Of a DNA stretch of 64,000 nucleotides, positions 1 through 37,830 are shown in pieces. The notes under the pieces were generated by a model. The model had not been told where the DNA came from and did no database searches. It saw nothing but the letters and a program-made list of their open reading frames with translations. The stretch comes from a virus. Both the position numbers and the translations under genes were made by a program. Position 1 is the first letter of the stretch. Each line of letters begins with the position of its first letter. Where the stretch lies: positions 24,250 to 88,249 of IMG/VR virus record IMGVR_UViG_3300042398_001307. One strand, written 5' to 3'.

Positions 1-315
1 TCATCCAAAGGAAGACCGAGTTCAAGAAAGGGGAAAAGTGGAGTAGTATCTGATGAAGCTAAATTAAAGATTTCGGCGGCGTTGAAAGGCATTTCAAAAC
101 CTTCAAAAATATTGTGTTGTCCATATTGTTTATCAGAGATTAAAGGTGCATCAAACGCTAAAAGATGGCATTTTGAAAATTGCAAAAAACACCCTAACTA
201 TATAAAACCGGTAGCATTACAAAAACCAATAATTCATTGTCCATTTTGTAATGCAGCCAGTTCTAATAGATTAAGTATGCAACGATGGCATTTTGAAAAT
301 TGCACAAATAAATAG
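1..315 (+). CDS. Homing endonuclease, C-terminal part (cut by window edge)
   Basis: The frame is open from the left edge to the TAA at 313-315, so the start lies outside the window. The first visible residues form a NUMOD3-like DNA-binding motif (GRP...KGK...SDEAKLKISAALKG). Two zinc-finger-like repeats follow, each CPxC ... RWHFENC, spaced about 35 residues. The same build (NUMOD3 then paired C..C..H..C repeats ending in YHGxxCK) ends the HNH endonuclease at 32.6 kb, so this is probably the tail of a related HNH or GIY-YIG homing endonuclease. The catalytic domain is not in view. It is one of few plus-strand genes here, as expected for a mobile gene. Confidence 0.7.
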   Translation, partial: SSKGRPSSRKGKSGVVSDEAKLKISAALKGISKPSKILCCPYCLSEIKGASNAKRWHFENCKKHPNYIKPVALQKPIIHCPFCNAASSNRLSMQRWHFENCTNK

Positions 316-3584: not shown

Positions 3585-3589
3585 ATTAG

Positions 3590-3685: not shown

Positions 3686-3689
3686 TTTG

Positions 3690-4249: not shown

Positions 4250-4273
4250 ACATTCCTTTATTGTTAAATCAAA

Positions 4274-4390: not shown

Positions 4391-4394
4391 TTAG

Positions 4395-4498: not shown

Positions 4499-4573
4499 TG
4501 GAAGCGGGAGTTGGATTTGAACCAACGACCTCTGGGTTATGAGCCCAGCCATCTACCACTGATATACCCCGCG
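4499..4573 (-). tRNA. tRNA-Met(CAT), initiator-like
   Basis: Anticodon loop CTCATAA on a stem with three consecutive G-C pairs at 29-31/39-41, plus an unpaired 1-72 position (C-U). Both are hallmarks of bacterial initiator tRNA. CCA is encoded. Confidence 0.85.
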
Positions 4574-4587
4574 ATAATTCTTGTTAT

Positions 4588-4655
4588 AACTGATACTATA
4601 GTAGATGTATATTTGATCTATGATCGCTATTATTATATGTAATAGCATCAGTTAT
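4588..4655 (-). ncRNA. Structured leader RNA before the initiator-like tRNA
   Basis: Minus strand ATAACTGAT ... ATCAGTTAT closes a domain holding a GCTATTA/TAATAGC hairpin with a 7-nt loop and a GATC-ATA-GATC hairpin. It begins just after the promoter at 4663-4691. The function is unknown. Confidence 0.5.
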
Positions 4656-4662
4656 TTTTAGT

Positions 4663-4691
4663 AGTATACTTGATAATATTTTAGTTGTCAA
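4663..4691 (-). promoter_or_regulatory. sigma70-type promoter
   Basis: TTGACA, 17 bp, TATACT on the minus strand, reading into the leader RNA and the initiator-like tRNA. Confidence 0.85.
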
Positions 4692-4701
4692 GTATTTAAA
4701 A

Positions 4702-4759
4702 CAGGCTCATTTTTTCTTGTTTGCAATAAGATTATGTTATGCTGAATTGAGCCTAAAAT
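4702..4759 (-). ncRNA. Minimal P1/CAGCA cassette C with Cys-GCA anticodon arm
   Basis: End helix AGGCTCA/TGAGCCT, ATTCAGCA, then only a hairpin TCTTA-TTGCAAA-CAAGA: an anticodon arm (loop with U33 and anticodon GCA) with an A-C mismatch at 31-39. No T, D or acceptor arm. It starts one base behind the CCA of tRNA-Gly. Confidence 0.6.
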
Positions 4760-4760
4760 T

Positions 4761-4834
4761 TGGAGCGGACTACGAGATTCGAACTCGTTTAGCTAGCTTG
4801 GAAGGCTAGAGCACAACCCATATGCCAAGTCCGC
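4761..4834 (-). tRNA. tRNA-Gly(TCC)
   Basis: Complete cloverleaf: acceptor GCGGACT/AGTCCGC, anticodon stem CTAGC/GCTAG with loop CTTCCAA, T loop TTCGAAT, CCA encoded. Confidence 0.95.
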
Positions 4835-4843
4835 AATGTTTAA

Positions 4844-4902
4844 CAGGATACGTTTTATTTCACCAATTGAAAGTTTTGTATTTGCTGAATGTATCCTAAA
4901 AC
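4844..4902 (-). ncRNA. Minimal P1/CAGCA cassette D
   Basis: End helix AGGATAC/GTATCCT with ATTCAGCA. The interior is one hairpin TTTCA/TGAAA with a 5-nt loop. I see no clear anticodon loop in this copy. Confidence 0.55.
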
Positions 4903-4903
4903 T

Positions 4904-4979
<76 letters not shown>

Positions 4980-4987
4980 ATTATTCT

Positions 4988-5128
4988 TTAAACTTTGTGT
5001 TTAGTGCCACACACTGTACAAGTGGCGTTAACTTTTTTGAAATCAAGGTTCATTACTCGCATACCTTTTCCGTATGTTTTGTCTTGAAATTCATGATTAC
5101 AATTGCATTTCTTTACTTCTACAGCCAT
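4988..5128 (-). CDS. Small zinc-ribbon protein
   Basis: 46 residues with CNC near the N-terminus and CTVCGTKH near the C-terminus, which together could bind one zinc. The start MAVEVKKCNC overlaps the stop of the upstream gene (TAATG), so translation is coupled. The function is unknown; such tiny zinc-ribbon proteins are common in large phages. Confidence 0.7.
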   Translation of the reverse strand: MAVEVKKCNCNHEFQDKTYGKGMRVMNLDFKKVNATCTVCGTKHKV

Positions 5129-5307
5129 TAGGCACCTCTTTTAATAAGAATGTTAATACGATTTTGATATTTACGTTTATCACGTGGTCTAACAGTTTTT
5201 TCAACTAGTTCTTGTAATTTAGCTAAACTAAAATTACCAATTCTAACTCTACCATTTTTAGTTTGATTAGGGTTAGCTTTTCTGTTTCCTTTACTAATAG
5301 TTGCCAT
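5128..5307 (-). CDS. Small basic protein
   Basis: 59 residues, strongly basic (KGNRKANPNQ, RPRDKRKYQNR), without cysteines. It is first gene behind the promoter at 5319-5347 and coupled to the zinc-ribbon gene. The charge suggests nucleic-acid binding, but no family is recognised. Confidence 0.65.
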   Translation of the reverse strand: MATISKGNRKANPNQTKNGRVRIGNFSLAKLQELVEKTVRPRDKRKYQNRINILIKRGA

Positions 5308-5318
5308 TTGATGTCCTT

Positions 5319-5347
5319 ATTATACTATTACTTATTGTTGCTGTCAA
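5319..5347 (-). promoter_or_regulatory. sigma70-type promoter
   Basis: TTGACA, 17 bp, TATAAT on the minus strand, 12 bp before the start of the 59-residue gene. It overlaps the end of the upstream ORF. Confidence 0.85.
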
Positions 5348-5609
5348 GTGTTTTTATATTTTCTTCGATAAATTTAATTGCTTCATCGACTGGTAATTCA
5401 CCCACTTCTACATGAAATACATTTCTGTCTTGTGCATGAGCACCATGTGAATTAAATGCTACCTTTGGCAATTCTTTATCGTTGGTTGTACCTAACACTT
5501 CTTCAACAACTTCCTTTTTCTTACCGAAAATTGCATCCCAGTTATCTGCAAACTTCTGCCTGTTAACTGGTCTAGCTGCACTTCCTTTGCCGCCATGCCA
5601 TCCTGCCAT
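5328..5609 (-). CDS. Conserved-type small phage protein
   Basis: 93 residues beginning MAGWHGGKGSAARPVN and KFADNWDAIFGKK. The N-terminal glycine- and tryptophan-rich stretch followed by NWDxIFG looks like a small protein seen in many myoviruses, from memory only. Function unknown. The promoter for the next operon lies in its last codons. Confidence 0.65.
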   Translation of the reverse strand: MAGWHGGKGSAARPVNRQKFADNWDAIFGKKKEVVEEVLGTTNDKELPKVAFNSHGAHAQDRNVFHVEVGELPVDEAIKFIEENIKTLDSNNK

Positions 5610-5619
5610 TGTATCTCCG

Positions 5620-5799
5620 TTACATTTTTGTTGCCAATATAGTTTTGGCTAATTCTTTTGTTGCGATTAAATCATTCTGACTAAATGAACTTTTAATCTT
5701 TTCTGAAAATTCAATTCTTTCTTCTATTGTCATTAATCTATAAATTATTTTTATCAATTCATAATCAAATTCAGTTGGTTCTTCTAAATTTTCAAACAT
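5620..5799 (-). CDS. Hypothetical small acidic protein
   Basis: 59 residues, MFENLEEPTEFDYELIKIIY..., helical and acidic. It ends ten bases before the next start, so the genes are probably co-transcribed. No family recognised. Confidence 0.6.
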   Translation of the reverse strand: MFENLEEPTEFDYELIKIIYRLMTIEERIEFSEKIKSSFSQNDLIATKELAKTILATKM

Positions 5800-5821
5800 A
5801 ATAATTATCTAGTCAGTGTGT

Positions 5822-6154
5822 TTAAATTTCAGGTTGAGTTTTTATAAATCGATCAATATTTTGAATCATCAATTGTTTCAACCTAACTTTATCATATTCA
5901 GGTTCTTTTAAACATTCTGGAAGTGTTAGCCTGAATAAAGTTTCTTTTTCTTCATCATATATGGATAATGCCCATATCTGTGTTCCACAGAATCCACTAG
6001 CAGCTAATAATATCATTTGCCACCCATCACCTTTAATAAAACTATGGGTGCGTTGCAATCGTGGTCCAACATTTGTTTTCAGAAAATCAAAAGTATTAGC
6101 TAATCTATTTTGATAATCTTCACCATAAGAATTGTTTCCGTGTATTACTAGCAT
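5822..6154 (-). CDS. Hypothetical protein
   Basis: 110 residues from MLVIHGNNSYGEDYQNR. The longer in-frame start would overlap tRNA-Ala, so I use this ATG. It has a hydrophobic core segment MILLAASGFCGTQIWALSIYD and a basic C-terminal region. No family recognised. Confidence 0.6.
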   Translation of the reverse strand: MLVIHGNNSYGEDYQNRLANTFDFLKTNVGPRLQRTHSFIKGDGWQMILLAASGFCGTQIWALSIYDEEKETLFRLTLPECLKEPEYDKVRLKQLMIQNIDRFIKTQPEI

Positions 6155-6174
6155 TTGTGCCTCTGTGTTAAAAT

Positions 6175-6248
6175 TGGTGGAGACTAGGAGAGTTGAACTC
6201 CTGATAACGCCGTGCAAGGGCGTGGTTATACCATTTAACTAAATCCCC
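6175..6248 (-). tRNA. tRNA-Ala(TGC)
   Basis: Anticodon arm ACGCC-CTTGCAC-GGCGT, T arm AGGAG-TTCAACT-CTCCT, acceptor GGGGATT/AGTCTCC with two wobble pairs, CCA encoded. Confidence 0.9.
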
Positions 6249-6251
6249 GGT

Positions 6252-6905
6252 TTATTTTAATTTTCGTCCCTTAACCCATCCTTCTGGTATTGGACTATTC
6301 TTTTGTATCTTTATATTTTTGTTAAGTTCTGCATTATGAATCCACATAGTTCCGTATTGAGAATTCTTTTCACCTGATTGTGAAATTGAACTTAACATAC
6401 CTATTTTTCTCTTTGCTTCATCTGAATGAGTTTTACCAAAAAAAGTGCCTGGTTTATTGCTATACTCTTTCTTTTTTATATCACTAATGGTTTTAGAGTA
6501 TTGTTGTTTGAATTCGTTATCTTCACGCAACTTTTTATGAAATGCATCAGAAGCTTTTTTCAGTGATGATAAAACTCTTGGATTATTTTTCCTACAATAT
6601 CTATTGAAGCCAGATGAATTTACATAATCGAACCCACCATGACCACCTTCTTTAATATTATACGTATCATTCCTACGGATAAAATCTTCTGTAACTAATT
6701 CTCTCTCCAATTCATACATTTGGTCTGAATTGTCAAATACTTGTAAAATGTCTTTTGTAAAATTATCAATACCATACTTACCAATAGCATGTTTAATGTA
6801 TTTTCCAGAACCCATATAACCATCATTTATATCTTTGGTTTTGTGAACACCAATATAAATTTTACCATTTGTATTGTTTGTTATTTTATAAACTATATAT
6901 TTCAT
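6252..6905 (-). CDS. GIY-YIG homing endonuclease with NUMOD3 motif
   Basis: About 217 residues. The GIY-YIG core is at the N-terminus (YIVYKITN ... KIYIGVHKTK), followed by the conserved GYMGSGKYIKHAI and an E-rich VTEDFI segment. The C-terminal half has NUMOD3-type GKTHSDEAKRKIG DNA-binding repeats and a GWVKGRK tail. These enzymes cut a target DNA and spread by recombination. It stands free between tRNA-Ala and tRNA-Asn, as Seg-type endonucleases do in T4-like phages. I chose MKYIVYK as start; an upstream ATG is possible. A paralogue lies at 8636-9247. Confidence 0.92.
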   Translation of the reverse strand: MKYIVYKITNNTNGKIYIGVHKTKDINDGYMGSGKYIKHAIGKYGIDNFTKDILQVFDNSDQMYELERELVTEDFIRRNDTYNIKEGGHGGFDYVNSSGFNRYCRKNNPRVLSSLKKASDAFHKKLREDNEFKQQYSKTISDIKKKEYSNKPGTFFGKTHSDEAKRKIGMLSSISQSGEKNSQYGTMWIHNAELNKNIKIQKNSPIPEGWVKGRKLK

Positions 6906-6948
6906 AGTATTATTTAGCAAAGTTCGAGACTTACCTTCGAACTTAAAA

Positions 6949-7053
6949 TACTATTTGCTCCACCCGCGCGACTCGAACACGCATACGGTTTCCCGATTAC
7001 AACTGATTAACAGTCAGTCCTCTTACCATTAGAGTAGGGTGGAGCAAATAGTA
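6949..7053. repeat. 17-bp inverted repeat flanking and including the tRNA-Asn acceptor
   Basis: Positions 6949-6965 and 7037-7053 are perfect reverse complements. The acceptor stem of tRNA-Asn is extended by ten further base pairs of leader and trailer. This would form a long helix in the precursor and may direct processing. Confidence 0.85.
6958..7043 (-). tRNA. tRNA-Asn(GTT) with long variable arm
   Basis: Anticodon arm ACTGA-CTGTTAA-TCAGT, D stem CTCT/AGAG, T loop TTCGAGT. The variable region is about 20 nt and contains CGG-GAAA-CCG, which normal tRNA-Asn lacks. CCA is not encoded. Confidence 0.8.
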
Positions 7054-7059
7054 CTTATA

Positions 7060-7157
7060 ATAGTTTAGTATCAAGAGTGAGTTGTACCAAGATACCGGTC
7101 ATTCAAAATATTGTTATACAATATCTAAATCTCGCACCGCATGTTATTGTAAACTAT
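7060..7157 (-). ncRNA. Structured RNA of unknown function (R1)
   Basis: Closed by ATAGTTTA/TAAACTAT, with a perfect ATATTGT-ATA-ACAATAT hairpin and a GTATC/GATAC stem. It has no credible reading frame and lies just upstream of tRNA-Asn in the same transcript. Confidence 0.45.
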
Positions 7158-7175
7158 CTTTTATTTATATTTTAT

Positions 7176-7243
7176 CAGGATGCGTTTTAACATTTTCAAT
7201 TTTTGAGATTGCTGTTTAAAGTTTGCTGAATGCATCCTAAAAC
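7176..7243 (-). ncRNA. Minimal P1/CAGCA cassette E with Leu-CAA anticodon arm
   Basis: End helix AGGATGC/GCATCCT, ATTCAGCA, and hairpin CAAT-CTCAAAA-ATTG whose 7-nt loop reads as anticodon CAA with U33 and A37. Confidence 0.6.
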
Positions 7244-7247
7244 TTTA

Positions 7248-7340
7248 CAGGATCTTTTATTTAGTGGACTTGAACCACTTAACTTACGAATATTAATCGT
7301 TTGTATTTTCCAAAGGAATATGCTGTAAAGATCCTAAATT
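7248..7340 (-). ncRNA. P1/CAGCA cassette F with tRNA 3' half only (Ser-like)
   Basis: End helix AGGATCT/AGATCCT with TTACAGCA. The inside holds TTTGGAAA (possible anticodon GGA), a class II-like variable hairpin ACGA/TCGT and an intact T arm AGTGG-TTCAAGT-CCACT. There is no 5' half and no acceptor stem. Confidence 0.55.
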
Positions 7341-7341
7341 T

Positions 7342-7430
7342 TGGCGGAAGATGTGAGATTCGAACTCACGCAACCCTTTCGAGGTTGACGGTTTAGCAAA
7401 CCGCTCCATTAACCACTCTGGCAACCTTCC
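7342..7430 (-). tRNA. tRNA-Ser(GCT)
   Basis: Class II tRNA: acceptor GGAAGGT/ATCTTCC, anticodon loop TTGCTAA, long variable arm (AACCTCGAAAGGGTT), T loop TTCGAAT, CCA encoded. Confidence 0.93.
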
Positions 7431-7445
7431 TATTATTTTAAATTA

Positions 7446-7529
7446 TGGTACGTCTGGGCAGATTCGAACTGCCAACTCCGAAGAGTATGGGTTTTAAGCC
7501 CACTATGTATTCCGTTCCATCACAGACGC
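7446..7529 (-). tRNA. tRNA-Leu(TAA)
   Basis: Anticodon arm GTGGG-CTTAAAA-CCCAT, variable arm ACTCTTCGGAGTT, T arm GGCAG-TTCGAAT-CTGCC, CCA encoded. Confidence 0.93.
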
Positions 7530-7546
7530 ATTATATACTTTATTAT

Positions 7547-7628
7547 CAGGTTAGTTGCTTACCTAAAGCTAATCGCATATAGCGACCGGAATCGAACCGA
7601 CTGTTTATTTTGCTGTAGCTAACCTAAC
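7547..7628 (-). ncRNA. P1/CAGCA cassette G (T arm, short acceptor, D arm; no anticodon arm)
   Basis: End helix AGGTTAG/CTAACCT with CTACAGCA. Then T arm GTCGG-TTCGATT-CCGGT, hairpin GTCGC-TATAT-GCGAT in place of an acceptor, and D arm GCTT/AAGC. The end helix takes the place of the anticodon stem. The order is permuted. Confidence 0.6.
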
Positions 7629-7634
7629 ATTTAT

Positions 7635-7773
7635 CAGAATGCATTTTATTTTTCACCATCGCGTTTACCAGTTTCGCCACTTAAAACCAGGTTTTAAGGT
7701 AGGACTTGAACCTACAAATCAAAGATAACGGTTTCCTATTAATAAAATATAGTTGCTGTAAGCATTCTAAAAC
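7635..7773 (-). tRNA. Permuted tRNA cassette I, class II, Leu-like
   Basis: End helix AGAATGC/GCATTCT with TTACAGCA. The 3' half (ACCGT, ATC-TTT-GAT variable arm, T arm GTAGG-TTCAAGT-CCTAC, CTTAAAA) precedes the 5' half (TTTTAAG, Leu-type D arm GTGGCGAAACTGGTAAACGC, ATGGT). The acceptor TTTTAAG/CTTAAAA is a perfect 7 bp with a 5-nt linker, and ATGGT/ACCGT pairs. I could not settle the joined anticodon loop. Confidence 0.75.
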
Positions 7774-7774
7774 T

Positions 7775-7849
7775 TGGAGGCAGCGGGATGATTCGAACAT
7801 CCGTCCTTTGGGTTATGAGCCCAACAATCTACCACTGATATACGCTGCG
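7775..7849 (-). tRNA. tRNA-Met(CAT), second initiator-like copy
   Basis: Anticodon arm TTGGG-CTCATAA-CCCAA with GGG/CCC next to the loop and a C-C mismatch at 1-72. Other acceptor pairs are intact. CCA encoded. Confidence 0.82.
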
Positions 7850-7865
7850 TTAATTCTTTGTGTAT

Positions 7866-7893
7866 ATTATACACGATTTTTTAATCTTGTCAA
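7866..7893 (-). promoter_or_regulatory. sigma70-type promoter
   Basis: TTGACA, 16 bp, TATAAT on the minus strand, about 16 bp upstream of the second initiator-like tRNA. Confidence 0.9.
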
Positions 7894-7905
7894 GATTAAT
7901 TTTAA

Positions 7906-8033
7906 CAGGATCCTTTTTTTACGTTGCTCTACCAAACTGAGCTAATCCCCGGTAGTTTTTCGGGGATGTTGGATTTGAACCAACGACCAACGGCTCCCAA
8001 TGCAATTATTGTATGCTGAACGGATCCTAAAAC
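7906..8033 (-). tRNA. Permuted tRNA cassette H, tRNA-Pro(TGG)
   Basis: Best-preserved copy. End helix AGGATCC/GGATCCT with GTTCAGCA. The 3' half (GC-ATTGGGA-GCCGT, T arm GTTGG-TTCAAAT-CCAAC, ATCCCCG) precedes the 5' half (CGGGGAT, D arm TAGCTC...GAGC, ACG). The acceptor CGGGGAT/ATCCCCG is perfect, with a 9-nt linker. Joining 5'-half position 29 to 3'-half position 30 gives stem ACGGC/GCCGT and a Pro-UGG loop. A-rich bases separate the 5' half from the trailer. Confidence 0.85.
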
Positions 8034-8073
8034 TTTTAAAATTGTTAAAGAGCTTATTAACTAATATGTGTAC

Positions 8074-8101
8074 ATTATACACTAATTAAATTATATGTCA
8101 A
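8074..8101 (-). promoter_or_regulatory. sigma70-type promoter
   Basis: TTGACA, 16 bp, TATAAT on the minus strand, directly upstream of permuted cassette H. Confidence 0.9.
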
Positions 8102-8541
8102 GTATAATTTGCTTCCCATCCATCTTTTTCAGTAAAAAATCTTACTGCCTTGATATTTGGATATTCACCAGCATCAAACCAATGTTTTACATTAGCTGGG
8201 ACACTGATTAAATCATTTGGTCCTACATCAAGTTCATAAAAAGTATCAGATACATTAAAAAAGAACTTTGCAGTACCATGAGTAAATAAACGCATTTCAT
8301 AATCAGTGTGAAAATGCTCTTTTTTAAACTGCTCTCTTAATGATTGATAGTTGTTAGTTGAACTATCCAATACAATAGTATCATTGTAAGGAACATCATA
8401 ATCATATTTTATTTGTTCTATAATGTTCTCATCGGGTGGAACATGGACATATAATACATGAATATTATCTAATTGTCTAGCAATTTCTTCATATTCCACG
8501 TAAGTAGTAAAATCTTCTGTGTTATCATAAATTTTTAACAT
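8098..8541 (-). CDS. mtnD: Acireductone dioxygenase (ARD)
   Basis: About 147 residues with the ARD cupin signature. EHFHTDYEMRLFTHG carries two His and one Glu metal ligands, NVKHWFDAG the fourth ligand His, and the family ending RFFTEKDGWEANYT is present. ARD oxidises the acireductone of the methionine salvage pathway to a keto acid and formate (Fe form) or to methylthiopropionate and CO (Ni form). No other salvage gene is in the window. I start at MLKIYDN; an ATG seven codons earlier is possible. It is an auxiliary metabolic gene in the tRNA array. Confidence 0.88.
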   Translation of the reverse strand: MLKIYDNTEDFTTYVEYEEIARQLDNIHVLYVHVPPDENIIEQIKYDYDVPYNDTIVLDSSTNNYQSLREQFKKEHFHTDYEMRLFTHGTAKFFFNVSDTFYELDVGPNDLISVPANVKHWFDAGEYPNIKAVRFFTEKDGWEANYT

Positions 8542-8580
8542 AATACTACTTATCTTTTGCACTATAATAGTGCTAAAATT

Positions 8581-8609
8581 TGGCAGCGCGGGAGGGATTT
8601 GAATTGACC
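8581..8609 (-). pseudogene. tRNA 3'-end fragment
   Basis: Minus strand TTCAAAT-CCCTC-CCGCGCT-GCCA looks like a T loop, half T stem, 3' acceptor strand and CCA. The other half of the T stem does not pair. A sequence resembling a matching 5' acceptor and D arm (AGCCCGG then TGATGAAATGG) lies beyond the endonuclease near 9.30 kb. The element may be a tRNA broken by insertion of the GIY-YIG gene. Confidence 0.4.
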
Positions 8610-8635
8610 ATCACTGCTTCTATATTTCTGAGTTA

Positions 8636-9247
8636 TTATTTCTTGTGTGGCATCCCGCCTTTTTTCCACCCTATAGTTTCATAATAAGTTAGTTCTTGTT
8701 TATCTATTCGCTTGGCAACAAACCCATTATTAATGAGAATTTTACCTATATTTGCTTCAGCAATTTTTTTACTATGGTCTAATGTCCTTGGATATGATGA
8801 TATTTTTTTCATATGCTCACGGTGAGCAGACGGGTTATGTTTAGACCAATGGTTTTTTGAAATATTGTTTCGTTTTCTATCAGTTGTAATTTGCTGTAAT
8901 GCAGCATTTCTTATTTTTTCTTTAGTTTCTGTTGAATGCCTTCTTCCACTAAATGCACCTATAATGCCAGGGTTCCCTCCAGAACCTCCCGGTTTTATAT
9001 TATATGTATTGGAAGTAGTTATAAATTCTTCGGTAACTATCTCCGCTTCTTTATCAAACATTTCTTGTTTAGAATTGAAAATAAACAAAATATCTTTTTT
9101 AAAATTTTCAATTCCGTATTTTTTTATGGCTCGTTTTAAATATTTTCCTGAACCCATGTATCCATCATTAATATCATCGGTGGAATGAGCTCCAATGTAT
9201 ATTTTTGAATCTATCAAATTAGTTGTTTTGTATATTATATAATACAT
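8636..9247 (-). CDS. GIY-YIG homing endonuclease with NUMOD3 motif
   Basis: 203 residues, paralogue of the gene at 6252-6905. N-terminal YYIIYKTTN ... KIYIGAHSTDDIND and GYMGSGKYLKRAIKKYG make up the GIY-YIG domain. GRRHSTETKEKIRNAA and a second, degenerate copy (DHSKKIAEANIG) are NUMOD3 DNA-binding motifs. The tail ETIGWKKGGMPHKK matches the paralogue. RBS AGGAG lies before ATG. It is flanked by the tRNA fragments described at 8581 and near 9.3 kb. Confidence 0.92.
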   Translation of the reverse strand: MYYIIYKTTNLIDSKIYIGAHSTDDINDGYMGSGKYLKRAIKKYGIENFKKDILFIFNSKQEMFDKEAEIVTEEFITTSNTYNIKPGGSGGNPGIIGAFSGRRHSTETKEKIRNAALQQITTDRKRNNISKNHWSKHNPSAHREHMKKISSYPRTLDHSKKIAEANIGKILINNGFVAKRIDKQELTYYETIGWKKGGMPHKK

Positions 9248-9261
9248 TTAAATTCTCCTAT

Positions 9262-9440
9262 ATGTATTTATACAAAACCATCATGATACCATTTCATCAC
9301 CGGGCTAAAAAAATAAATTCCAGGATAGTTTAATCTCTATGAAGCCTCTATCTTCCTATTGAAAGTTATCTGGAACGGGCTAACTCACTCTTGTTTATTT
9401 TAATAGGTTAAGAGCTTAACCGCCACAAAGGGCTCCTATT
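9262..9440 (-). ncRNA. Intergenic structured region (R2)
   Basis: No reading frame. It contains the hairpin GGTTAAG..CTTAACC and a CCGCCA/TGGCGG pair overlapping the end of tRNA-Ser. Near the endonuclease start is AGCCCGG-TGATGAAATGGTATCA, similar to a tRNA 5' half. It is otherwise unexplained. Confidence 0.35.
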
Positions 9441-9443
9441 GTT

Positions 9444-9533
9444 TGGCGGAAGCGGTGAGATTCGAACTCACGGAACCTTGCGGTTCGCCAGTTTTCAAGA
9501 CTGGTGCAATAGGCCATGCTCTGCCACACTTCC
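9444..9533 (-). tRNA. tRNA-Ser(TGA)
   Basis: Class II tRNA: acceptor GGAAGTG/CGCTTCC, anticodon arm CCAGT-CTTGAAA-ACTGG, variable arm AACCGCAAGGTT, CCA encoded. Confidence 0.93.
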
Positions 9534-9570
9534 ATAATTTGAAGGCCGGTCTATGACCTGCCTTAATAAT

Positions 9571-9646
9571 TGGTACCCTGGGGGAGACTTGAACTCCCAA
9601 AACCTGGTTTCTAAGACCAGTACGTATGCCATTCCGTCACCAGGGC
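9571..9646 (-). tRNA. tRNA-Leu(TAG) with short variable loop
   Basis: 76 nt cloverleaf, acceptor GCCCTGG/CCAGGGT, anticodon arm CTGGT-CTTAGAA-ACCAG, T arm GGGAG-TTCAAGT-CTCCC, CCA encoded. The variable loop is only GTTTT, whereas bacterial tRNA-Leu normally carries a long arm. Confidence 0.88.
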
Positions 9647-9652
9647 AATATT

Positions 9653-9904
9653 CTATTTATCTGTTAAATTTACTGCTAATAATAAAAAAGTCATCATCTT
9701 TTCATCTTTCAATCCAATCCAGTATGGGCCAGTAGATTGGCTTGCTCTATAATGATTCCAAATACTGAAATCCATACCATATTTTTCTTTTAATGTATTT
9801 CTACATTCTTGTGCGCCTTTTGACCATGTGCTATTGAATCGTAATGCTACAACAAATCCTTTATGGTATAGATGATGTGTTTTATTCAGTTTAACAACTT
9901 TCAT
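9653..9904 (-). CDS. Hypothetical protein
   Basis: 83 residues from MKVVKLNKTHHLYHKG; the longer in-frame start would overlap tRNA-Thr. It has WSKGAQECRNTLKEKYG and GPYWIGLKDEKMMTFLLL segments and looks like a small folded domain. I do not recognise it. Confidence 0.6.
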   Translation of the reverse strand: MKVVKLNKTHHLYHKGFVVALRFNSTWSKGAQECRNTLKEKYGMDFSIWNHYRASQSTGPYWIGLKDEKMMTFLLLAVNLTDK

Positions 9905-9919
9905 ATTATTAAAATAATT

Positions 9920-9995
9920 TGGAGCTAATAATCGGGATCGAACCGATGACCTCCACTTTACCAAAGTGGTGCTCTACCTACTGAGCTATATCAGC
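9920..9995 (-). tRNA. tRNA-Thr(GGT)
   Basis: Acceptor GCTGATA/TATTAGC, anticodon arm CCACT-TTGGTAA-AGTGG, T arm ATCGG-TTCGATC-CCGAT, CCA encoded. Confidence 0.95.
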
Positions 9996-10004
9996 TTTTT
10001 AAAT

Positions 10005-10079
10005 TGGCACCCTTGGAGGGAATCGAACCCCCATCATCTAGTTCGTAGCCAGGTATTCTATCCATTAAACTACAAGGGC
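10005..10079 (-). tRNA. tRNA-Arg(ACG)
   Basis: Acceptor GCCCTTG/CAAGGGT, anticodon loop CTACGAA (A34 would need conversion to inosine by host TadA), T loop TTCGATT, CCA encoded. Position 27-43 is a C-A mismatch. Confidence 0.9.
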
Positions 10080-10089
10080 TTTATTTTAT

Positions 10090-10207
10090 CAGGATCTGCT
10101 TTTTACGGTTTCCTACCACTAGAAGAACTCTTATAATTAAGAGTGTAGGATTCGAACCTACGTTCCCGGCCTGGAATGCTAATTGTATGCTGTATAGATC
10201 CTAAAAT
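10090..10207 (-). tRNA. Permuted tRNA cassette J, tRNA-Gly(TCC)
   Basis: End helix AGGATCT/AGATCCT with ATACAGCA. The 3' half (GC-ATTCCAG-GCCGG, T arm GTAGG-TTCGAAT-CCTAC, ACTCTTA) precedes the 5' half (TAAGAGT, D arm TTCT/GGAA, CCG). The acceptor is a perfect 7 bp and the linker only ATTA. Joining 29 to 30 gives the perfect stem CCGGC/GCCGG and loop ATTCCAG (Gly-UCC). Confidence 0.85.
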
Positions 10208-10211
10208 TGTT

Positions 10212-10484
10212 TTACTTCAGCTGTGATTTTTTAAACAAACGATCCAACTTAGTGTTGATATCTTTGCAGTATTGTTCAGCCAATAATGCAGCTTTCACTG
10301 CAGCATCAGTTTTAACATTTAATACAGTCACTGCTTTGTTGGTGTCAGCCAACTCAGAAACTAATGTTTTCTGGTTTGATTCGATCACATCGATTTCACT
10401 TTGTAATTTAGCAATATCAGAATTAGTAGCACATCCAGATAAACCAATCAATGCGACTACTGATAACATAACTAATTTTCTCAT
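10212..10484 (-). CDS. Lpp-like outer-membrane lipoprotein
   Basis: 90 residues. There is a signal peptide with a clean lipobox (VALIGLSGC, Cys about residue 18), then a long heptad-repeat helix of about 60 residues ending in basic FKKSQLK. This is the build of Braun-type lipoproteins (Lpp/OprI), which trimerise and can link the outer membrane to peptidoglycan through a C-terminal Lys. It would be lipidated at the host outer membrane and might stabilise the envelope or block further adsorption; that role is inference. Confidence 0.75.
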   Translation of the reverse strand: MRKLVMLSVVALIGLSGCATNSDIAKLQSEIDVIESNQKTLVSELADTNKAVTVLNVKTDAAVKAALLAEQYCKDINTKLDRLFKKSQLK

Positions 10485-10513
10485 TTTACACCTTTGTTAA
10501 GTTAAAAAAAATA

Positions 10514-10606
10514 CAGGATGATATATTTTGGCGGAGCCGAGGGATTCGAACCCCCTATAGATACCTACTTATCGGCTTCGGGATTACAGTGCTGTAATCA
10601 TCCTAT
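10514..10606 (-). ncRNA. P1/CAGCA cassette K with tRNA 3' half only (Tyr-like)
   Basis: End helix AGGATGA/TCATCCT with TTACAGCA. The interior reads CTGTAAT (Tyr anticodon GTA), a GATA/TATC variable hairpin, T arm GGGGG-TTCGAAT-CCCTC and an acceptor-like end with encoded GCCA. I find no 5' half. Confidence 0.5.
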
Positions 10607-10615
10607 GTTAAACAA

Positions 10616-11029
10616 TTAAGATAATCGTTCTTTTTCTGATTCCATAAAGCGTGTTCGTTTTACAAGTGATAAAACGAATTCTGACTCAGCGATTGATTTG
10701 GAATCAAGATCAATTCGCAAGTTCAAGAAATACGAAACATCGTTGTGAGTTAGTTTGATTGAGTTGAAATCAGTAACTTCACCAGTAAATGATGATGGTA
10801 CTTTGATAACAATGTCTAACAGTCTTTCAAAATGTTTATCCGCATCAATGAAATACTGTTCAACGAATGATTTCAAATGATGTGGTGTATTTCTCATGGT
10901 ATCGGTTTTATAATTTCTGTAAGAACCAACCGAAACTTTTACCGCTTCAATAAGGTCAGTACCAGTGTATCTAGGATACTCAGGGATTAAGTTGTAAGGG
11001 GTTTTTACTTCTTGTTCAATTACTAGCAT
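10616..11029 (-). CDS. Hypothetical protein
   Basis: 137 residues from MLVIEQEVKTPYNLIPEYPR; the longer in-frame start would overlap tRNA-Gln. Mixed alpha/beta composition, no membrane segment, no motif that I recognise. Confidence 0.6.
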   Translation of the reverse strand: MLVIEQEVKTPYNLIPEYPRYTGTDLIEAVKVSVGSYRNYKTDTMRNTPHHLKSFVEQYFIDADKHFERLLDIVIKVPSSFTGEVTDFNSIKLTHNDVSYFLNLRIDLDSKSIAESEFVLSLVKRTRFMESEKERLS

Positions 11030-11057
11030 TATATCATTCCGATAATAGTTAAAAAAT

Positions 11058-11131
11058 TGGCAGGGATACAAGAACTCGAATCTTGAATGCCAGAATCAAA
11101 ATCTGGTGTGTTACCATTACACTATATCCCA
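11058..11131 (-). tRNA. tRNA-Gln(TTG)
   Basis: Anticodon arm CCAGA-TTTTGAT-TCTGG, T loop TTCGAGT, acceptor GGGATA/TATCCC with a U-U at 1-72, CCA encoded. Confidence 0.93.
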
Positions 11132-11141
11132 ATTGTTATTA

Positions 11142-11262
11142 CAGGTTAGCATTTTAAGTTTTCCCAATTAAACTACATTAAGTGACCAACCCTAACGCTG
11201 GGATTCGAACCCAGAACTTTCTTTTACAATAAGATTTAATAAAATTGCTGAAACTAACCTAT
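11142..11262 (-). tRNA. Permuted tRNA cassette L, tRNA-Gln(TTG)
   Basis: End helix AGGTTAG/CTAACCT with TTTCAGCA. The 3' half (TCTT-ATTGTAA-AAGAA, T arm CTGGG-TTCGAAT-CCCAG, CGTTAGG) precedes the 5' half (CTTAATG, D arm GTTT/AAAC, TT). The acceptor pairs over 7 bp with two wobbles and an 8-nt linker. Joining at about 27/28 gives TTCTT/AAGAA and a Gln-UUG loop. It directly follows the ordinary tRNA-Gln in map order. Confidence 0.78.
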
Positions 11263-11298
11263 TGGTCTTATTCGCTGGTGACTAACCTCGAATGTTCT

Positions 11299-11556
11299 TT
11301 AAATTATTTCTATAAAGTCTTCTATCATACTTTTTGCTTTCTTGTATGATTTTTCATTCCACAATATGTCAGAATTATTTGGCATATGTCCAGGATTTCC
11401 ACCTAAATGACTATTACGTATCAAGTACTCTTCTGCTTCTCGGAAGTAATTTAAAAATGCTTGTCCATACCTATATGTTGGGTATTTTACCAACATCCAA
11501 GTATAATGAGCGTTAAATTCTTCATACTGCTGTGTTGTTATTGAGAATTCAGTCAT
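11299..11556 (-). CDS. Hypothetical protein
   Basis: 85 residues, MTEFSITTQQYEEFN..., mostly helical with aromatic clusters (YPTYRYGQAFLNYF) and a MIEDFIEII end. No family recognised. Confidence 0.6.
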   Translation of the reverse strand: MTEFSITTQQYEEFNAHYTWMLVKYPTYRYGQAFLNYFREAEEYLIRNSHLGGNPGHMPNNSDILWNEKSYKKAKSMIEDFIEII

Positions 11557-11577
11557 ATTATAGTTAAGTTAAGATTA

Positions 11578-11646
11578 CAGGATACACATTTTTACGGGTT
11601 TGATTAGCAGTCAAATGTATTATTGTTGCTGTAGGTATCCTAAAAC
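11578..11646 (-). ncRNA. Minimal P1/CAGCA cassette M with Ser-GCT anticodon arm
   Basis: End helix AGGATAC/GTATCCT, CTACAGCA, then a perfect anticodon arm TTTGA-CTGCTAA-TCAAA (anticodon GCT) and A-rich bases. No other tRNA parts. It has its own promoter 15 bp upstream. Confidence 0.65.
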
Positions 11647-11660
11647 CGTTTATGCTATGT

Positions 11661-11688
11661 ATTATACAGCATTTTAAAACATTGTCAA
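11661..11688 (-). promoter_or_regulatory. sigma70-type promoter
   Basis: TTGACA, 16 bp, TATAAT on the minus strand, placed to transcribe minimal cassette M directly. Confidence 0.9.
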
Positions 11689-11697
11689 TATTTATTT

Positions 11698-11772
11698 TGG
11701 AGCGGGTAATGAGATTCGAACTCACGACATTCAGGTTGGCAACTTGAAGCTCTACCACTGAGCTATACCCGC
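11698..11772 (-). tRNA. tRNA-Gly(GCC)
   Basis: Acceptor GCGGGTA/TTACCCGC region, anticodon loop TTGCCAA (one stem mismatch), T arm GTGAG-TTCGAAT-CTCAT, CCA encoded. Confidence 0.92.
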
Positions 11773-11779
11773 TTAAAAT

Positions 11780-11854
11780 TGGCGGACTGTACGGAATTCG
11801 AATCCGTGATACCACCGTGACAGGGTGGCGTGATAACCGCTTCACTAACAGTCC
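11780..11854 (-). tRNA. tRNA-Asp(GTC)
   Basis: Acceptor GGACTGT/ACAGTCC, anticodon arm CCACC-CTGTCAC-GGTGG, T loop TTCGAAT, GCCA encoded. Confidence 0.95.
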
Positions 11855-11855
11855 A

Positions 11856-11975
11856 AAATTGTTGAGTATCTAACATCATACAATACTCGGGAGACCTCTA
11901 CCAGCCTCGTTTTTATTACTGCGCCTATCCGAAGATAGTGTTTCAAATGATATTAAGGTTGCCCAGCTCTAGAGT
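11856..11975 (-). ncRNA. Structured RNA of unknown function (R3)
   Basis: No reading frame. Hairpins CTATC-TTCG-GATAG and GAGTAT/ATACTC are clear. It lies between tRNA-Cys and tRNA-Asp. Confidence 0.4.
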
Positions 11976-11976
11976 T

Positions 11977-12055
11977 TGGAGCTCCGAGACGGATTCGAAC
12001 CGCCGATTTTTACTGATTTGCAGTCAGTCCCATTAAGCCACTTTGGTATCGGAGC
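11977..12055 (-). tRNA. tRNA-Cys(GCA)
   Basis: Acceptor GCTCCGA/TCGGAGC, anticodon arm ACTGA-CTGCAAA-TCAGT, T loop TTCGAAT, CCA encoded. Confidence 0.95.
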
Positions 12056-12062
12056 AAAAACT

Positions 12063-12509
12063 TTATAATAATTTTAAATGACCACTTATTGGGTCAATAT
12101 TTTCTGGATAATCTGGACCGAGTGCTAAACAAGTTTTTGTTGGCACTCCATTAAATTCAGTCAATCCAGCATCAGTTATTAATTTAACATTTACGTTATT
12201 ATCTAATGCTTTTTGATAAATGTCAAGCAATTCTTCTTCACTGTCAACTGAAACACAAACTTTGGTAAATCTACCTTCTAACCATTCTTTAAGAGGCTGT
12301 TTATTTAATTGGATTACAGCACAATTTCCTACCTGAGATTCATAATTGTGATAACCATCGTTATAATCGATAGATGCATCCAAATATATCTCGCTGTAGT
12401 TAAGAATAGCGCCTAATGATGCGTGACTTGCTTGAGCGGCAATTTTGCCTTTTCTCATGTTAAGGTCTTTTCTAACTACAATTACTTGTTTTGGTTCATT
12501 ATTAGCCAT
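12063..12509 (-). CDS. Peptidyl-tRNA hydrolase, Pth2 type
   Basis: 148 residues. The archaeal/eukaryotic Pth2 signature is complete: KQVIVVRKDLNMRKGKIAAQASHAS with the catalytic Lys/His region, LKEWLEGRFTKVCVSVDSEEEL, the DAGLTEFNGVPTKTCLALGP active-site block, and a LKLL end. Pth2 frees tRNA from peptidyl-tRNA that dropped off ribosomes. Most bacteria use the unrelated Pth1, so this is a phage-type enzyme. Its place inside the tRNA array fits recycling of phage tRNAs. I start at MANNEPKQ; upstream in-frame codons overlap tRNA-Ile. Confidence 0.92.
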   Translation of the reverse strand: MANNEPKQVIVVRKDLNMRKGKIAAQASHASLGAILNYSEIYLDASIDYNDGYHNYESQVGNCAVIQLNKQPLKEWLEGRFTKVCVSVDSEEELLDIYQKALDNNVNVKLITDAGLTEFNGVPTKTCLALGPDYPENIDPISGHLKLL

Positions 12510-12524
12510 ATTTTTCCTAAATGT

Positions 12525-12598
12525 TGGTACCCAGTAGTGGTATCGATCCACTGTTTTGGTCTTATCAGGACCACGTTCTACCTTTGAACTAACCGGGT
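12525..12598 (-). tRNA. tRNA-Ile(GAT)
   Basis: Acceptor ACCCGGT/ACTGGGT, anticodon arm TGGTC-CTGATAA-GACCA, T arm AGTGG-ATCGATA-CCACT (unusual A54), CCA encoded. Confidence 0.9.
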
Positions 12599-12604
12599 AT
12601 AATT

Positions 12605-12769
12605 CTATTTAAACGGAGTTTTTTCACAAGCTAGTGCATGTAGATATGCATATCTTCTAGCTTCATAAGTCAATGTTGCTTCGTTTAATTGTTGTTGTAA
12701 TTTTAGCATATCTTTCTCTGCACTGTCAAGATATCTTTTAGCAATATCTGATGTTCTTTTACCTGCCAT
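12605..12769 (-). CDS. Small coiled-coil protein
   Basis: 54 residues, MAGKRTSDIAKRYLDSAEKD..., a single charged helix with heptad-like LQQQLNEA. It ends with TAG. Unknown function. Confidence 0.6.
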   Translation of the reverse strand: MAGKRTSDIAKRYLDSAEKDMLKLQQQLNEATLTYEARRYAYLHALACEKTPFK

Positions 12770-12771
12770 AC

Positions 12772-13146
12772 TTACCTCGCAAATCTTTTAGATTTTAACA
12801 ATGACGATAATTCTTTTTCAAATGAAAAAGGTTTATTATCTTCTGGTCTATCGTAAATATAATCTGGAACAATAATTCCAATACAAGTTAGAGCATTGTC
12901 TAAACTAGGTTCATTAAAAGTTGCCCAAGGCAAGTTATTCGAAGAATGTTTAAATAACCACAATAAACCATGCATTTGTTCACTAGTACCGCCATTCAAC
13001 ACATACATTGTTTTATGGGTCTCTGCCCAGTCTGTCAGTATTTCATTACCAGGGAAATTATTGTTGATTTCCTGTAAGCAATGTGCAGCTTGAATTCCAT
13101 GTTGTATGGAACTTAGGTACATATTTGTTAAAAAGTATCCTCTCAT
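12772..13146 (-). CDS. Hypothetical protein, possibly Pth2-like fold
   Basis: 124 residues from MRGYFLTNMYLSSIQHGIQAAHC. The N-terminal strand-helix (LSSIQHGIQAAHCLQEI) followed by HKTMYVLNGG and a TFNEPSLDNALTCIGIIVP block recalls the layout of Pth2-like proteins (start strand, AAxAxH helix), but the catalytic block is absent. It is adjacent to the true Pth2. The resemblance is weak. Confidence 0.5.
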   Translation of the reverse strand: MRGYFLTNMYLSSIQHGIQAAHCLQEINNNFPGNEILTDWAETHKTMYVLNGGTSEQMHGLLWLFKHSSNNLPWATFNEPSLDNALTCIGIIVPDYIYDRPEDNKPFSFEKELSSLLKSKRFAR

Positions 13147-13163
13147 ATATTCCTCTGTGTGTT

Positions 13164-13238
13164 TGGAGGTAACGGGTAGATTTGAACTACCGACCAACTC
13201 CGTATGAAGGAGCTGCACTACCACTGTGCTACGTTACC
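13164..13238 (-). tRNA. tRNA-Met(CAT), elongator-like (or Ile2)
   Basis: Acceptor GGTAACG/CGTTACC fully paired, anticodon arm CTCC-TTCATAC-GGAG, CCA encoded. The 1-72 pair is G-C, unlike the two initiator-like copies. An Ile-CAU (lysidine) role cannot be excluded. Confidence 0.9.
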
Positions 13239-13257
13239 ATTATATAAACTAATTAGG

Positions 13258-13331
13258 GGTGACCGATGGGACTTGAACCCATAAAAACCTGAATCACAAT
13301 CAGGATCGTCTACCAATTCCGACACGGCCAC
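13258..13331 (-). tRNA. tRNA-His(GTG)
   Basis: Acceptor GTGGCCG/CGGTCAC, anticodon arm CCTGA-TTGTGAT-TCAGG, T arm ATGGG-TTCAAGT-CCCAT. Leader and trailer continue as ACTAATTAGG/CCTAATTAGT, an extended stem. The expected G-1 is not encoded. Confidence 0.88.
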
Positions 13332-13347
13332 ACCTAATTAGTCTAAT

Positions 13348-13472
13348 TTTATATTAAAATGCATTAAACGAGGGAACACGAATGCTATACATTCTCCTGT
13401 CTCCGGCCCTCAAGCTTAACATCCTTCTGGCCAGTGATGTCAAGGTGACTGATTAATGCACTTTAATATAAA
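13348..13472 (-). ncRNA. Structured RNA with 20-bp terminal stem (R4)
   Basis: Ends TTTATATTAAAGTGCATTAA and its near-perfect complement close the element. Inside are GAATG-TATAG-CATTC, GAGGG/CCCTC and GGCC/GGCC stems. It has no tRNA T loop and no coding frame. It abuts R4b. Confidence 0.55.
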
Positions 13473-13583
13473 ATCATATAATAAAGCATACTACACGGAA
13501 TTGAACCGTCTTCATTCAAGCCAGGAGCTCAAACTGTGATCCACACAACGCTGATCAGACGCTAATATGCTTTATTATATGAT
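13473..13583 (-). ncRNA. tRNA-like RNA with 18-bp terminal stem (R4b)
   Basis: A perfect 18-bp terminal stem (ATCATATAATAAAGCATA and complement) encloses a T-arm-like ACGG-TTCAATT-CCGT near the 3' end, a TGTG/CACA hairpin and a GAGCTC segment. It resembles a tRNA with a stretched acceptor, but I cannot build a normal anticodon arm. It ends one base before tRNA-Lys. Confidence 0.5.
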
Positions 13584-13584
13584 T

Positions 13585-13660
13585 TGGTAGGACCGCCGAG
13601 ACTCGAACTCGAATTCCCGGATTAAAAGTCCGGTGTTCTAACCAATTGAACTACGATCCC
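13585..13660 (-). tRNA. tRNA-Lys(TTT)
   Basis: Acceptor GGGATCG/CGGTCCT, anticodon arm CCGGA-CTTTTAA-TCCGG, T loop TTCGAGT, CCA encoded. Confidence 0.95.
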
Positions 13661-13726
13661 AAATTTTCTTGCCTTCTTTTTCTGTTTTTGTCTTTCGTTT
13701 CATAATTATTTCCTATGTTGTTATAG

Positions 13727-13793
13727 CAGGATACGTTTTTACTAGTTGAATTAAAAGTTCAGTGTAAATTGTTTGCTGAATGTATCCTAAAAC
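13727..13793 (-). ncRNA. Minimal P1/CAGCA cassette N with Lys-TTT anticodon arm
   Basis: End helix AGGATAC/GTATCCT, ATTCAGCA, then hairpin TGAA-CTTTTAA-TTCA (anticodon TTT). It has its own promoter upstream and lies next to the ordinary tRNA-Lys. Confidence 0.65.
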
Positions 13794-17778: not shown

Positions 17779-18029
17779 ATATCCGTGTGGAATTTATCCA
17801 CTCTTTTAGCCTTAAATTTTCTCTCTTCAAATAGCAAAACCGGTTGTATGAAGGCATATCCGATCATCGTCCTGTTAAGGATAGTTGCTAAGTACTCCAT
17901 TACAGCGTGGAGATTAATGTCCAAGTGGCTTTTCTGCCCTATTTTCATTACACACGAAATAAACCTGTGCTAGTCATAACTGTACTATTGTGCCTGAAAA
18001 ATGTGCCTAAGAATTGCCTAATGAGATGT

Positions 18030-19131: not shown

Positions 19132-19206
19132 TGGTGCGCTTGATGGGATTCGAACCCATTATCGTAAGTTTTAGAGGCTTTTGCTATACCAAGCAGCTTC
19201 AAGCGC
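19132..19206 (-). tRNA. tRNA with CTA anticodon (amber-suppressor-like)
   Basis: Acceptor GCGCTTG/CAAGCGC perfect, T arm ATGGG-TTCGAAT-CCCAT perfect, CCA encoded. The loop that keeps U33 and A37 is CTCTAAA, anticodon CTA, which would read UAG. The anticodon stem is weak (three pairs, mismatches at 27-43 and 31-39). An Arg-TCT reading would need C33. It may be a suppressor or a decaying tRNA. Confidence 0.6.
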
Positions 19207-19214
19207 GAAATTAT

Positions 19215-19597
19215 AAAAATAGTAGGGATTTCTCCCTACTAGGTATTTTTGGTTATAAGGTATTTCCTACCCCAGAACTCGCTGGATATTAAGCAGCGAT
19301 AGCATCAAAGATGCCATCTACAGTGTAGAATTCAAATTTTGTATTTGCTTTTGCATTTACTTTAAATGCTTGATTTACGGTCATCGCCTACCGATTCTCC
19401 AATGTTCTTTTATCCAGCAATCGAATCTAAGTCAGGCCCATTATAAAACATATTAGCACTTCCCTTTTAAGGGGCAGGAAGTTTATGGCTATGGCCCCAC
19501 TCTGATACCTCTAATATGTTTTATGGTGGACCTGGCGATGTTCTGCCCATCGCGTCTTACCAAACTATTACAACATCTTCAACGAATTCTTTAAATT
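19215..19597 (-). ncRNA. ssrA: Circularly permuted (two-piece) tmRNA
   Basis: In transcript order: a promoter; an acceptor piece with a T-arm-like GCGATG/CATCGC hairpin and CAGGTCC-ACCA (ending 19524); a linker closed by a 14-bp stem (19511-19524 with 19443-19456); then the coding piece starting GGGCCTGACTTAGATTCGATT (19439), like the tmRNA 5' end. GGGCCTG pairs with CAGGTCC over 7 bp. A tag frame 19348-19289 starts GCA-AAT and ends in AIAA-stop: ANTKFEFYTVDGIFDAIAA. GCTGGATA (19411-19418) pairs with TATCCAGC directly after the stop. tmRNA rescues stalled ribosomes and tags proteins for proteolysis. The T loop is not the usual TTCRA type. Confidence 0.8.
19219..19252 (-). terminator. Rho-independent terminator of the tmRNA
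   Basis: Minus strand AGTAGGG-AGAAA-TCCCTACT followed by ATTTTTAT, after the tag region. Confidence 0.85.
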
Positions 19598-19603
19598 ACA
19601 TGT

Positions 19604-19631
19604 ATTATACTACATAAAAAACTTTTGTCAA
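19604..19631 (-). promoter_or_regulatory. sigma70-type promoter of the tmRNA
   Basis: TTGACA, 16 bp, TATAAT on the minus strand; it would start the transcript near 19597, just before the tmRNA acceptor piece. Confidence 0.88.
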
Positions 19632-34246: not shown

Positions 34247-37794
<3,548 letters not shown>

Positions 37795-37830
37795 AATATG
37801 TTCTCCTATAATGTTAAGCAAGAAATACAG

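What the first reader, a model, noticed from the sequence alone, without database searches (positions are those of the whole stretch)
19215..19597. Phage-encoded circularly permuted (two-piece) tmRNA
The acceptor piece with CAGGTCC-ACCA lies upstream of a coding piece beginning GGGCCTGACTTAGATTCGATT. The seven acceptor pairs form between the pieces. The spacer between them is closed by a 14-bp stem. The tag frame starts GCA-AAT (Ala-Asn) and ends Ala-Ile-Ala-Ala-stop, with a helix around the tag. Permuted ssrA is established in alpha-proteobacteria, cyanobacteria and some beta-proteobacteria, but most tmRNAs in phages are one-piece. It lies next to a phage that also permutes tRNAs.
Basis: partly seen in the sequence, partly recalled or inferred. 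Interest (0 to 1): 0.9.

Follow-up and report, generated by a model that had tools for sequence, protein, structure and literature searches.

The report
Two-piece tmRNA gene in freshwater jumbo phage
A bacterial virus carries its own two-piece version of tmRNA, the RNA that frees stuck ribosomes and tags unfinished proteins; the gene looks intact and functional, but two-piece phage tmRNAs are already known, so it is a new member of a known kind whose mixed alpha/beta ancestry and long tag are the unusual parts.

Summary
On the minus strand at 19215-19597 lies a complete permuted ssrA gene: sigma70 promoter, acceptor piece (7-bp acceptor with G3:U70, encoded CCA), 84-nt spacer closed by a 14-bp helix, coding piece, tag and terminator. 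Rfam tmRNA_permuted scores 92.5 bits (cut-off 47); alpha_tmRNA also passes. The "weak" T loop, GGCAGAA, is the alphaproteobacterial form; ARAGORN misses it. By comparison with relatives the tag is 21 residues (AKANTKFEFYTVDGIFDAIAA), not 19. 26 of 87 related viral records (mostly fragments) carry a permuted tmRNA; the acceptor helix covaries (0/500 shuffles reach it), G3:U70 is kept in 27/27 copies, and tags change more synonymously than non-synonymously. No record searched encodes SmpB, so host SmpB is presumably used. Two-piece phage tmRNAs are published (Melnitz; 53 of 133 phage tmRNAs), so the class is known. Unusual here: one phage family holds alpha-type and beta-type forms; this copy joins an alpha-type tRNA-like domain to a tag and 3' end shared with near relatives whose tRNA-like domain differs; the tag carries a family-specific FEFYTVD-like insert; the spacer contains a probable H-type pseudoknot. 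Processing, charging and tagging are inferred, not shown.

The parts
19604..19631 (-). sigma70-type promoter TTGACA-N16-TATAAT; predicted start of transcription near 19597
   Evidence: exact consensus match; 17 such in the window against 0.32 expected in shuffles; similar TTGACA/TATAAT upstream of L094, L098, L100, L107 and L126
19524..19597 (-). acceptor piece of the two-piece tmRNA (tRNA-like 3' half, encoded CCA end)
   Evidence: RF04321 match; cofold with the coding piece recovers the 7 acceptor pairs
19535..19553 (-). T arm: 6-bp stem GCGATG/CATCGC, loop GGCAGAA (alphaproteobacterial type)
   Evidence: RF01849 consensus; L125/L126 keep the loop with stem GCGGG/CCCGC, L102/L106 have GGCAGTG
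19528..19534 (-). acceptor 3' strand CAGGUCC, followed by A73 and CCA (19524-19527)
   Evidence: pairs 7/7 with 19433-19439; covariation 0/500 shuffles in ten distinct relatives
19440..19523 (-). intervening sequence, presumably excised, with a 14-bp closing helix
   Evidence: fold; length 84 against 26-279 in phage relatives and 5 and 30 in two bacterial genes
19455..19498 (-). probable H-type pseudoknot inside the spacer (GGGGC/GCCCC and ACUUCCU/GGGAAGU)
   Evidence: same element in L096, L098, L100, L118; p about 0.02 against shuffles; one compensatory change U-A to C-G in the second stem
19433..19439 (-). acceptor 5' strand GGGCCUG; G1 at 19439 is the expected RNase P site
19215..19439 (-). 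coding piece: D-loop region, tag frame, downstream region and terminator
   Evidence: RF04321/RF01849; alignment with 17 phage and 2 bacterial genes
19289..19354 (-). tag frame GCA...GCT GCT TAA, peptide AKANTKFEFYTVDGIFDAIAA (21 aa)
   Evidence: CM alignment, alignment, pN<pS in 122 of 123 tag pairs
19215..19241 (-). intrinsic terminator, stem AGTAGGGA/TCCCTACT plus T run
   Evidence: sequence; a terminator hairpin with T run at the equivalent place in most relatives

Best explanation
This is a functional phage ssrA gene of the circularly permuted form. One transcript is made from its own sigma70 promoter and ends at its own terminator (sequence features shown; use inferred). The transcript folds so that the acceptor stem closes across the spacer. 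Host RNase P should cut before G1 (19439) and 3'-end nucleases should trim to the encoded CCA (19524), releasing the 84-nt spacer and leaving two pieces held together by the acceptor stem and further helices (inferred). Host AlaRS should charge it through G3:U70; host SmpB and EF-Tu should bring it to stalled ribosomes; translation resumes at GCA 19354, adding AKANTKFEFYTVDGIFDAIAA, whose -IAA end should direct the product to ClpXP-type proteases (inferred). It probably maintains ribosome rescue while infection and mRNA decay create non-stop messages (inferred). The gene is mosaic: an alpha-type tRNA-like domain joined to a tag and 3' end found in close relatives with a different, canonical tRNA-like domain.
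For: RF04321 92.5 bits and RF01849 57.8 bits, both over cut-off. 7/7 acceptor pairs and G3:U70 in 27 of 27 copies (the parser required 7 pairs, not the G:U); acceptor covariation 0/500. ARAGORN independently calls permuted tmRNA* in homologues carrying the same spacer and tag modules. The two pieces bind in silico better than 199 of 200 shuffles and recover the acceptor stem ab initio. Tag frame open in every complete copy, ending in a hydrophobic residue followed by Ala-Ala or in -MVA, with pN<pS in 122/123 pairs. Own promoter and terminator. No SmpB in the own record or in 24 relatives, two of them over 370 kb. Mosaic: tag 91-100% and 3' end 92-97% identical to L096/L103, but acceptor piece and 5' coding part only 56-64%; beta_tmRNA fits L096 while alpha_tmRNA fits the window.
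Against: No RNA or protein data. The record is an 88-kb fragment, host unknown. ARAGORN misses this copy. The cofold puts the non-acceptor helix in a different register from the CM. Tag pairs are not independent, and the 21 codons are few. Whether host SmpB accepts an alpha-type T arm is untested.
Confidence: 0.88

Rival explanations
1. A decaying or captured bacterial gene with no function in the phage.
For: Fragmentary records; only 26 of 87 related records show it; T stem has an extra pair; one sibling (L103) lacks the encoded CCA.
Against: Acceptor covariation, G3:U70 in 27/27, open tag frames with synonymous bias, own promoter and terminator, spread over many divergent phages. The extra T-stem base is matched on the other side.
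Confidence: 0.06
2. A tmRNA mimic or decoy that titrates host SmpB or blocks host trans-translation, rather than a working tmRNA.
For: A CDS-less phage tmRNA (DS6A) is reported to inhibit the E. coli tmRNA (PMC11915505).
Against: Here the tag frame, resume context and stop codon are kept and look under purifying selection, which a decoy would not need.
Confidence: 0.05
3. A working tmRNA whose tag has an altered target: the extended FE(F/Y)xTVD tag sends products to a phage- or adaptor-specific fate rather than plain ClpXP degradation.
For: The insert recurs in window, L096, L098, L099, L100, L127 and in looser form in L091, L094, L101, L104; other family members have ordinary 10-13 aa tags.
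Against: C-termini remain hydrophobic-Ala-Ala or -VA, as in ordinary degradation tags; no partner identified.
Confidence: 0.15

Closest known systems
Two-piece ssrA of Methylophilales phage Melnitz and pelagimyophages (PMC9004378)
   Same: Phage-encoded permuted tmRNA, alpha-type in a phage of a non-alpha host, aquatic
   Different: Different phage family; Melnitz ssrA carries a predicted glutamine riboswitch, here the spacer has another conserved element, probably a pseudoknot, with no Rfam match
alpha_tmRNA RF01849
   Same: Over cut-off; T loop type GGCRGUA; acceptor piece first
   Different: Lower score (57.8) and a 21-aa tag with an insert; tag and 3' end shared with phage relatives whose tRNA-like domain is canonical
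beta_tmRNA RF01850 and bacterial genes L141, L137
   Same: Most relatives of this phage family match it (92-159 bits); coding 5' part aligns with L141
   Different: The window copy itself is not a beta match; bacterial spacers seen were 5 and 30 nt
tmRNAs of huge phages (Al-Shayeb et al. 2020, PMC7162821)
   Same: Very large phages with translation genes and tmRNA
   Different: That study used ARAGORN, which misses this alpha-type copy; five 484-735 kb uncultured-phage records (LR745206, LR7565xx) gave no RF04321 match

Membership tests
permuted (two-piece) tmRNA, RF04321 | covariance-model score over the gathering cut-off | tested here: met
   92.5 against 47 bits
permuted (two-piece) tmRNA, RF04321 | acceptor piece upstream of coding piece, 7-bp acceptor stem between them | tested here: met
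permuted (two-piece) tmRNA, RF04321 | G3:U70 and CCA end for alanine charging (sequence features) | tested here: met
   present; 27/27 copies have G3:U70; charging itself not tested
permuted (two-piece) tmRNA, RF04321 | tag frame with resume codon and hydrophobic-Ala-Ala end | tested here: met
permuted (two-piece) tmRNA, RF04321 | two mature RNA pieces produced by cleavage in the spacer | not testable with these tools
   needs RNA from infected cells
alpha_tmRNA RF01849 | score over the gathering cut-off and alpha-type T loop | tested here: met
   57.8 against 50 bits; GGCAGAA against consensus GGCgGUA
beta_tmRNA RF01850 | best-scoring permuted subtype over the gathering cut-off | tested here: not met
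   window listed as alpha, best of the clan; most relatives L091-L104 listed as beta
trans-translation system | SmpB partner encoded by the phage (not required if the host supplies it) | tested here: not met
   none in own record or 24 relatives; host SmpB presumed

The most novel reading that the evidence does not exclude
A phage lineage that builds tmRNAs by shuffling modules (alpha- or beta-type tRNA-like domain, spacer cargo, tag, 3' end), with a family-specific extended tag and a structured spacer RNA that is released as a separate functional product.
Probability: 0.2. Interest if true: 0.65.

Novelty: new member of a known kind. Interest (0 to 1): 0.42.

Why it matters
It shows that permuted tmRNA is a recurrent gene of a large group of freshwater jumbo phages, and that ARAGORN-based surveys undercount it because alpha-type T loops are missed. 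The alpha/beta mosaic and the conserved tag insert give a concrete system for asking what phages gain from their own ribosome-rescue RNA.

Tried and rejected
Direct DNA search of 50,697 phage records with the tmRNA or its 1.1-kb surroundings: no real match. SmpB search: none. Spacer as a known riboswitch: no Rfam family, only chance hits. A pseudoknot in every spacer: tested on 14 spacers, significant only for the window group, L121 and L127, so not a general rule. A host from tmRNA similarity: an exact 20-nt match only in a Pseudogulbenkiania MAG, and just 5 of 120 genomes of its order pass the cut-off, one of them (L142) reading as a one-piece gene, so host not assigned. GroEL/DnaK similarity to Salmonella or Acinetobacter 'phage' records: the hits lie in what look like bacterial contigs and say nothing about the phage's relatives. 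Five 484-735 kb uncultured-phage records: no permuted tmRNA.

Full report
WHAT IS THERE. The feature lies on the minus strand of an 88,249-bp IMG/VR record (window = 24250-88249 of it). Reading the minus strand: promoter TTGACA-16-TATAAT (19631-19604), acceptor piece ending in CAGGUCC-A-CCA (to 19524), an 84-nt spacer (19523-19440), then the coding piece starting GGGCCUGACUUAGAUUCGAUU at 19439, tag 19354-19289 with UAA, and an intrinsic terminator at 19241-19215. The seven acceptor pairs are complete and the third is G:U, the alanine identity pair (established knowledge). Rfam RF04321 (tmRNA_permuted) scores 92.5 bits, cut-off 47, E=1.5e-16 for the whole window; RF01849 (alpha_tmRNA) also passes at 57.8.

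The tag starts at the first GCA of TAAATGCAAAAGCA, which is the resume position in the CM and in the aligned relatives. It is 21 residues, AKANTKFEFYTVDGIFDAIAA. The T loop, called the weakest point, is GGCAGAA; the alphaproteobacterial consensus is GGCgGUA, and L125/L126 keep GGCAGAA on stem GCGGG/CCCGC where the window has GCGATG/CATCGC. So the loop is a known type, and it is probably why ARAGORN is silent here while calling tmRNA* in homologues with the same spacer or tag modules.

RELATIVES. Two markers (a DnaK-like protein and the neighbouring phrog_34511 protein) brought in related viral contigs. 19 of 38 and 7 of 49 records have RF04321 over its cut-off; three of the latter set were found through the tmRNA or its spacer. 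Most are fragments, so absence means little. The largest carriers are 383 and 372 kb, so these are jumbo phages; a virion protein is about 42-44% identical to those of T4-like cyanophages. In the 27 copies parsed, all have seven acceptor pairs (a condition of the parser) and all have G3:U70 (not a condition). Over ten distinct acceptors there are 12 cells with changes on both sides, 0 of 500 shuffles as high. Seventeen distinct tag sequences show pN below pS in 122 of 123 pairs, means 0.29 and 0.60 (pairs are not independent). Most of the longer tags, the window's included, carry an insert of the form F-(E/K)-(F/Y)-x-x-V-D or a looser variant; others have plain 10-13 aa tags such as ANAANDEVFALAA.

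ALPHA AND BETA TYPES IN ONE FAMILY. Most relatives match beta_tmRNA (92-159 bits); the window, L107, L125 and L106 match alpha_tmRNA. The window copy shares tag (91-100%) and 3' end (92-97%) with its near relatives L096 and L103, but only 56-64% in the acceptor piece and 5' coding part, where those have a canonical T loop; L107 has the reverse, an almost identical gene with a different 3' end (66%). The simplest reading is module exchange by recombination (inference).

THE SPACER. It is closed by 14 pairs. Its centre is conserved in L096, L098, L100 and L118 and can form an H-type pseudoknot, GGGGC/GCCCC with ACUUCCU/GGGAAGU: p about 0.02 against shuffles, with one compensatory change in the second stem and four in the closing helix, though L096 is imperfectly aligned there. 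Unrelated spacers in L121 and L127 also give significant pseudoknots, most others do not. The spacer can hold other cargo: an 84-aa frame in L097 and a 38-aa frame in L091/L105. A tRNA gene and a repetitive element inside such spacers have been reported (PMC11915505).

HOW IT LIKELY WORKS. Transcription, RNase P cut at G1, 3' trimming to CCA, spacer release, pairing of the two pieces, alanine charging, delivery by host SmpB, tagging, proteolysis. Only the sequence features are shown. In silico the two pieces bind by -13.0 kcal/mol, as well as or better than all but one of 200 shuffled acceptor pieces, and the acceptor stem is recovered without constraint; the remaining 18 pairs lie in another register than the CM's. 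SmpB is not encoded in any record searched.

WHAT IS KNOWN. Two-piece phage tmRNA is established: phage Melnitz, and 53 of 133 distinct phage tmRNAs by ARAGORN, 50 of them aquatic (PMC9004378). RF04321 and a curated set with 79 phage sequences are in PMC11915505. Huge phages with tmRNA are in PMC7162821. So this is a new member of a known kind; the mosaic, the tag insert and the spacer element are its unusual parts.

Noticed in passing
window 3480-13790, minus strand: About 14 copies of a covarying element: stem AGGxxxx, three bases, CAGCA, then 44-116 nt, then the complementary stem xxxxCCT followed by G(A/T/C)(T/A)AA or similar. Rfam reported no family for it at gathering scores. It is absent from the tmRNA.
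   Followed up: partly
window 7692-7715, 7961-7984, 10138-10161, 11191-11214, minus strand: Four candidate permuted tRNAs inside that element: T arm and 3' acceptor, 4-9 nt, then 5' acceptor and D arm. Other copies seem to enclose only an anticodon arm (e.g. near 11631 and 13778) or a T arm, as if tRNAs were encoded in pieces.
   Followed up: partly
window 19132-19206, minus strand: tRNA-like gene with anticodon CTA (called tRNA-Pyl by ARAGORN), just downstream of the tmRNA and kept in relatives L085, L086, L112, L113, L116; its anticodon stem looks poor. A possible amber suppressor.
   Followed up: no
window 17829-17975, minus strand: Polynucleobacter-1 RNA, 83.1 bits, also near the tmRNA in L103.
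   Followed up: no
L097 1641-1895; L091 spacer: Open frames of 84 aa (membrane-like) and 38 aa lie wholly inside the tmRNA spacer, between CCA and G1.
   Followed up: partly
window, minus strand, e.g. 2744-61978: 17 exact TTGACA-15..18-TATAAT promoters, 0.32 expected in shuffles.
   Followed up: no
window 34271-35881 and 35899-37839, minus strand: Phage GroEL and a DnaK-like protein.
   Followed up: no
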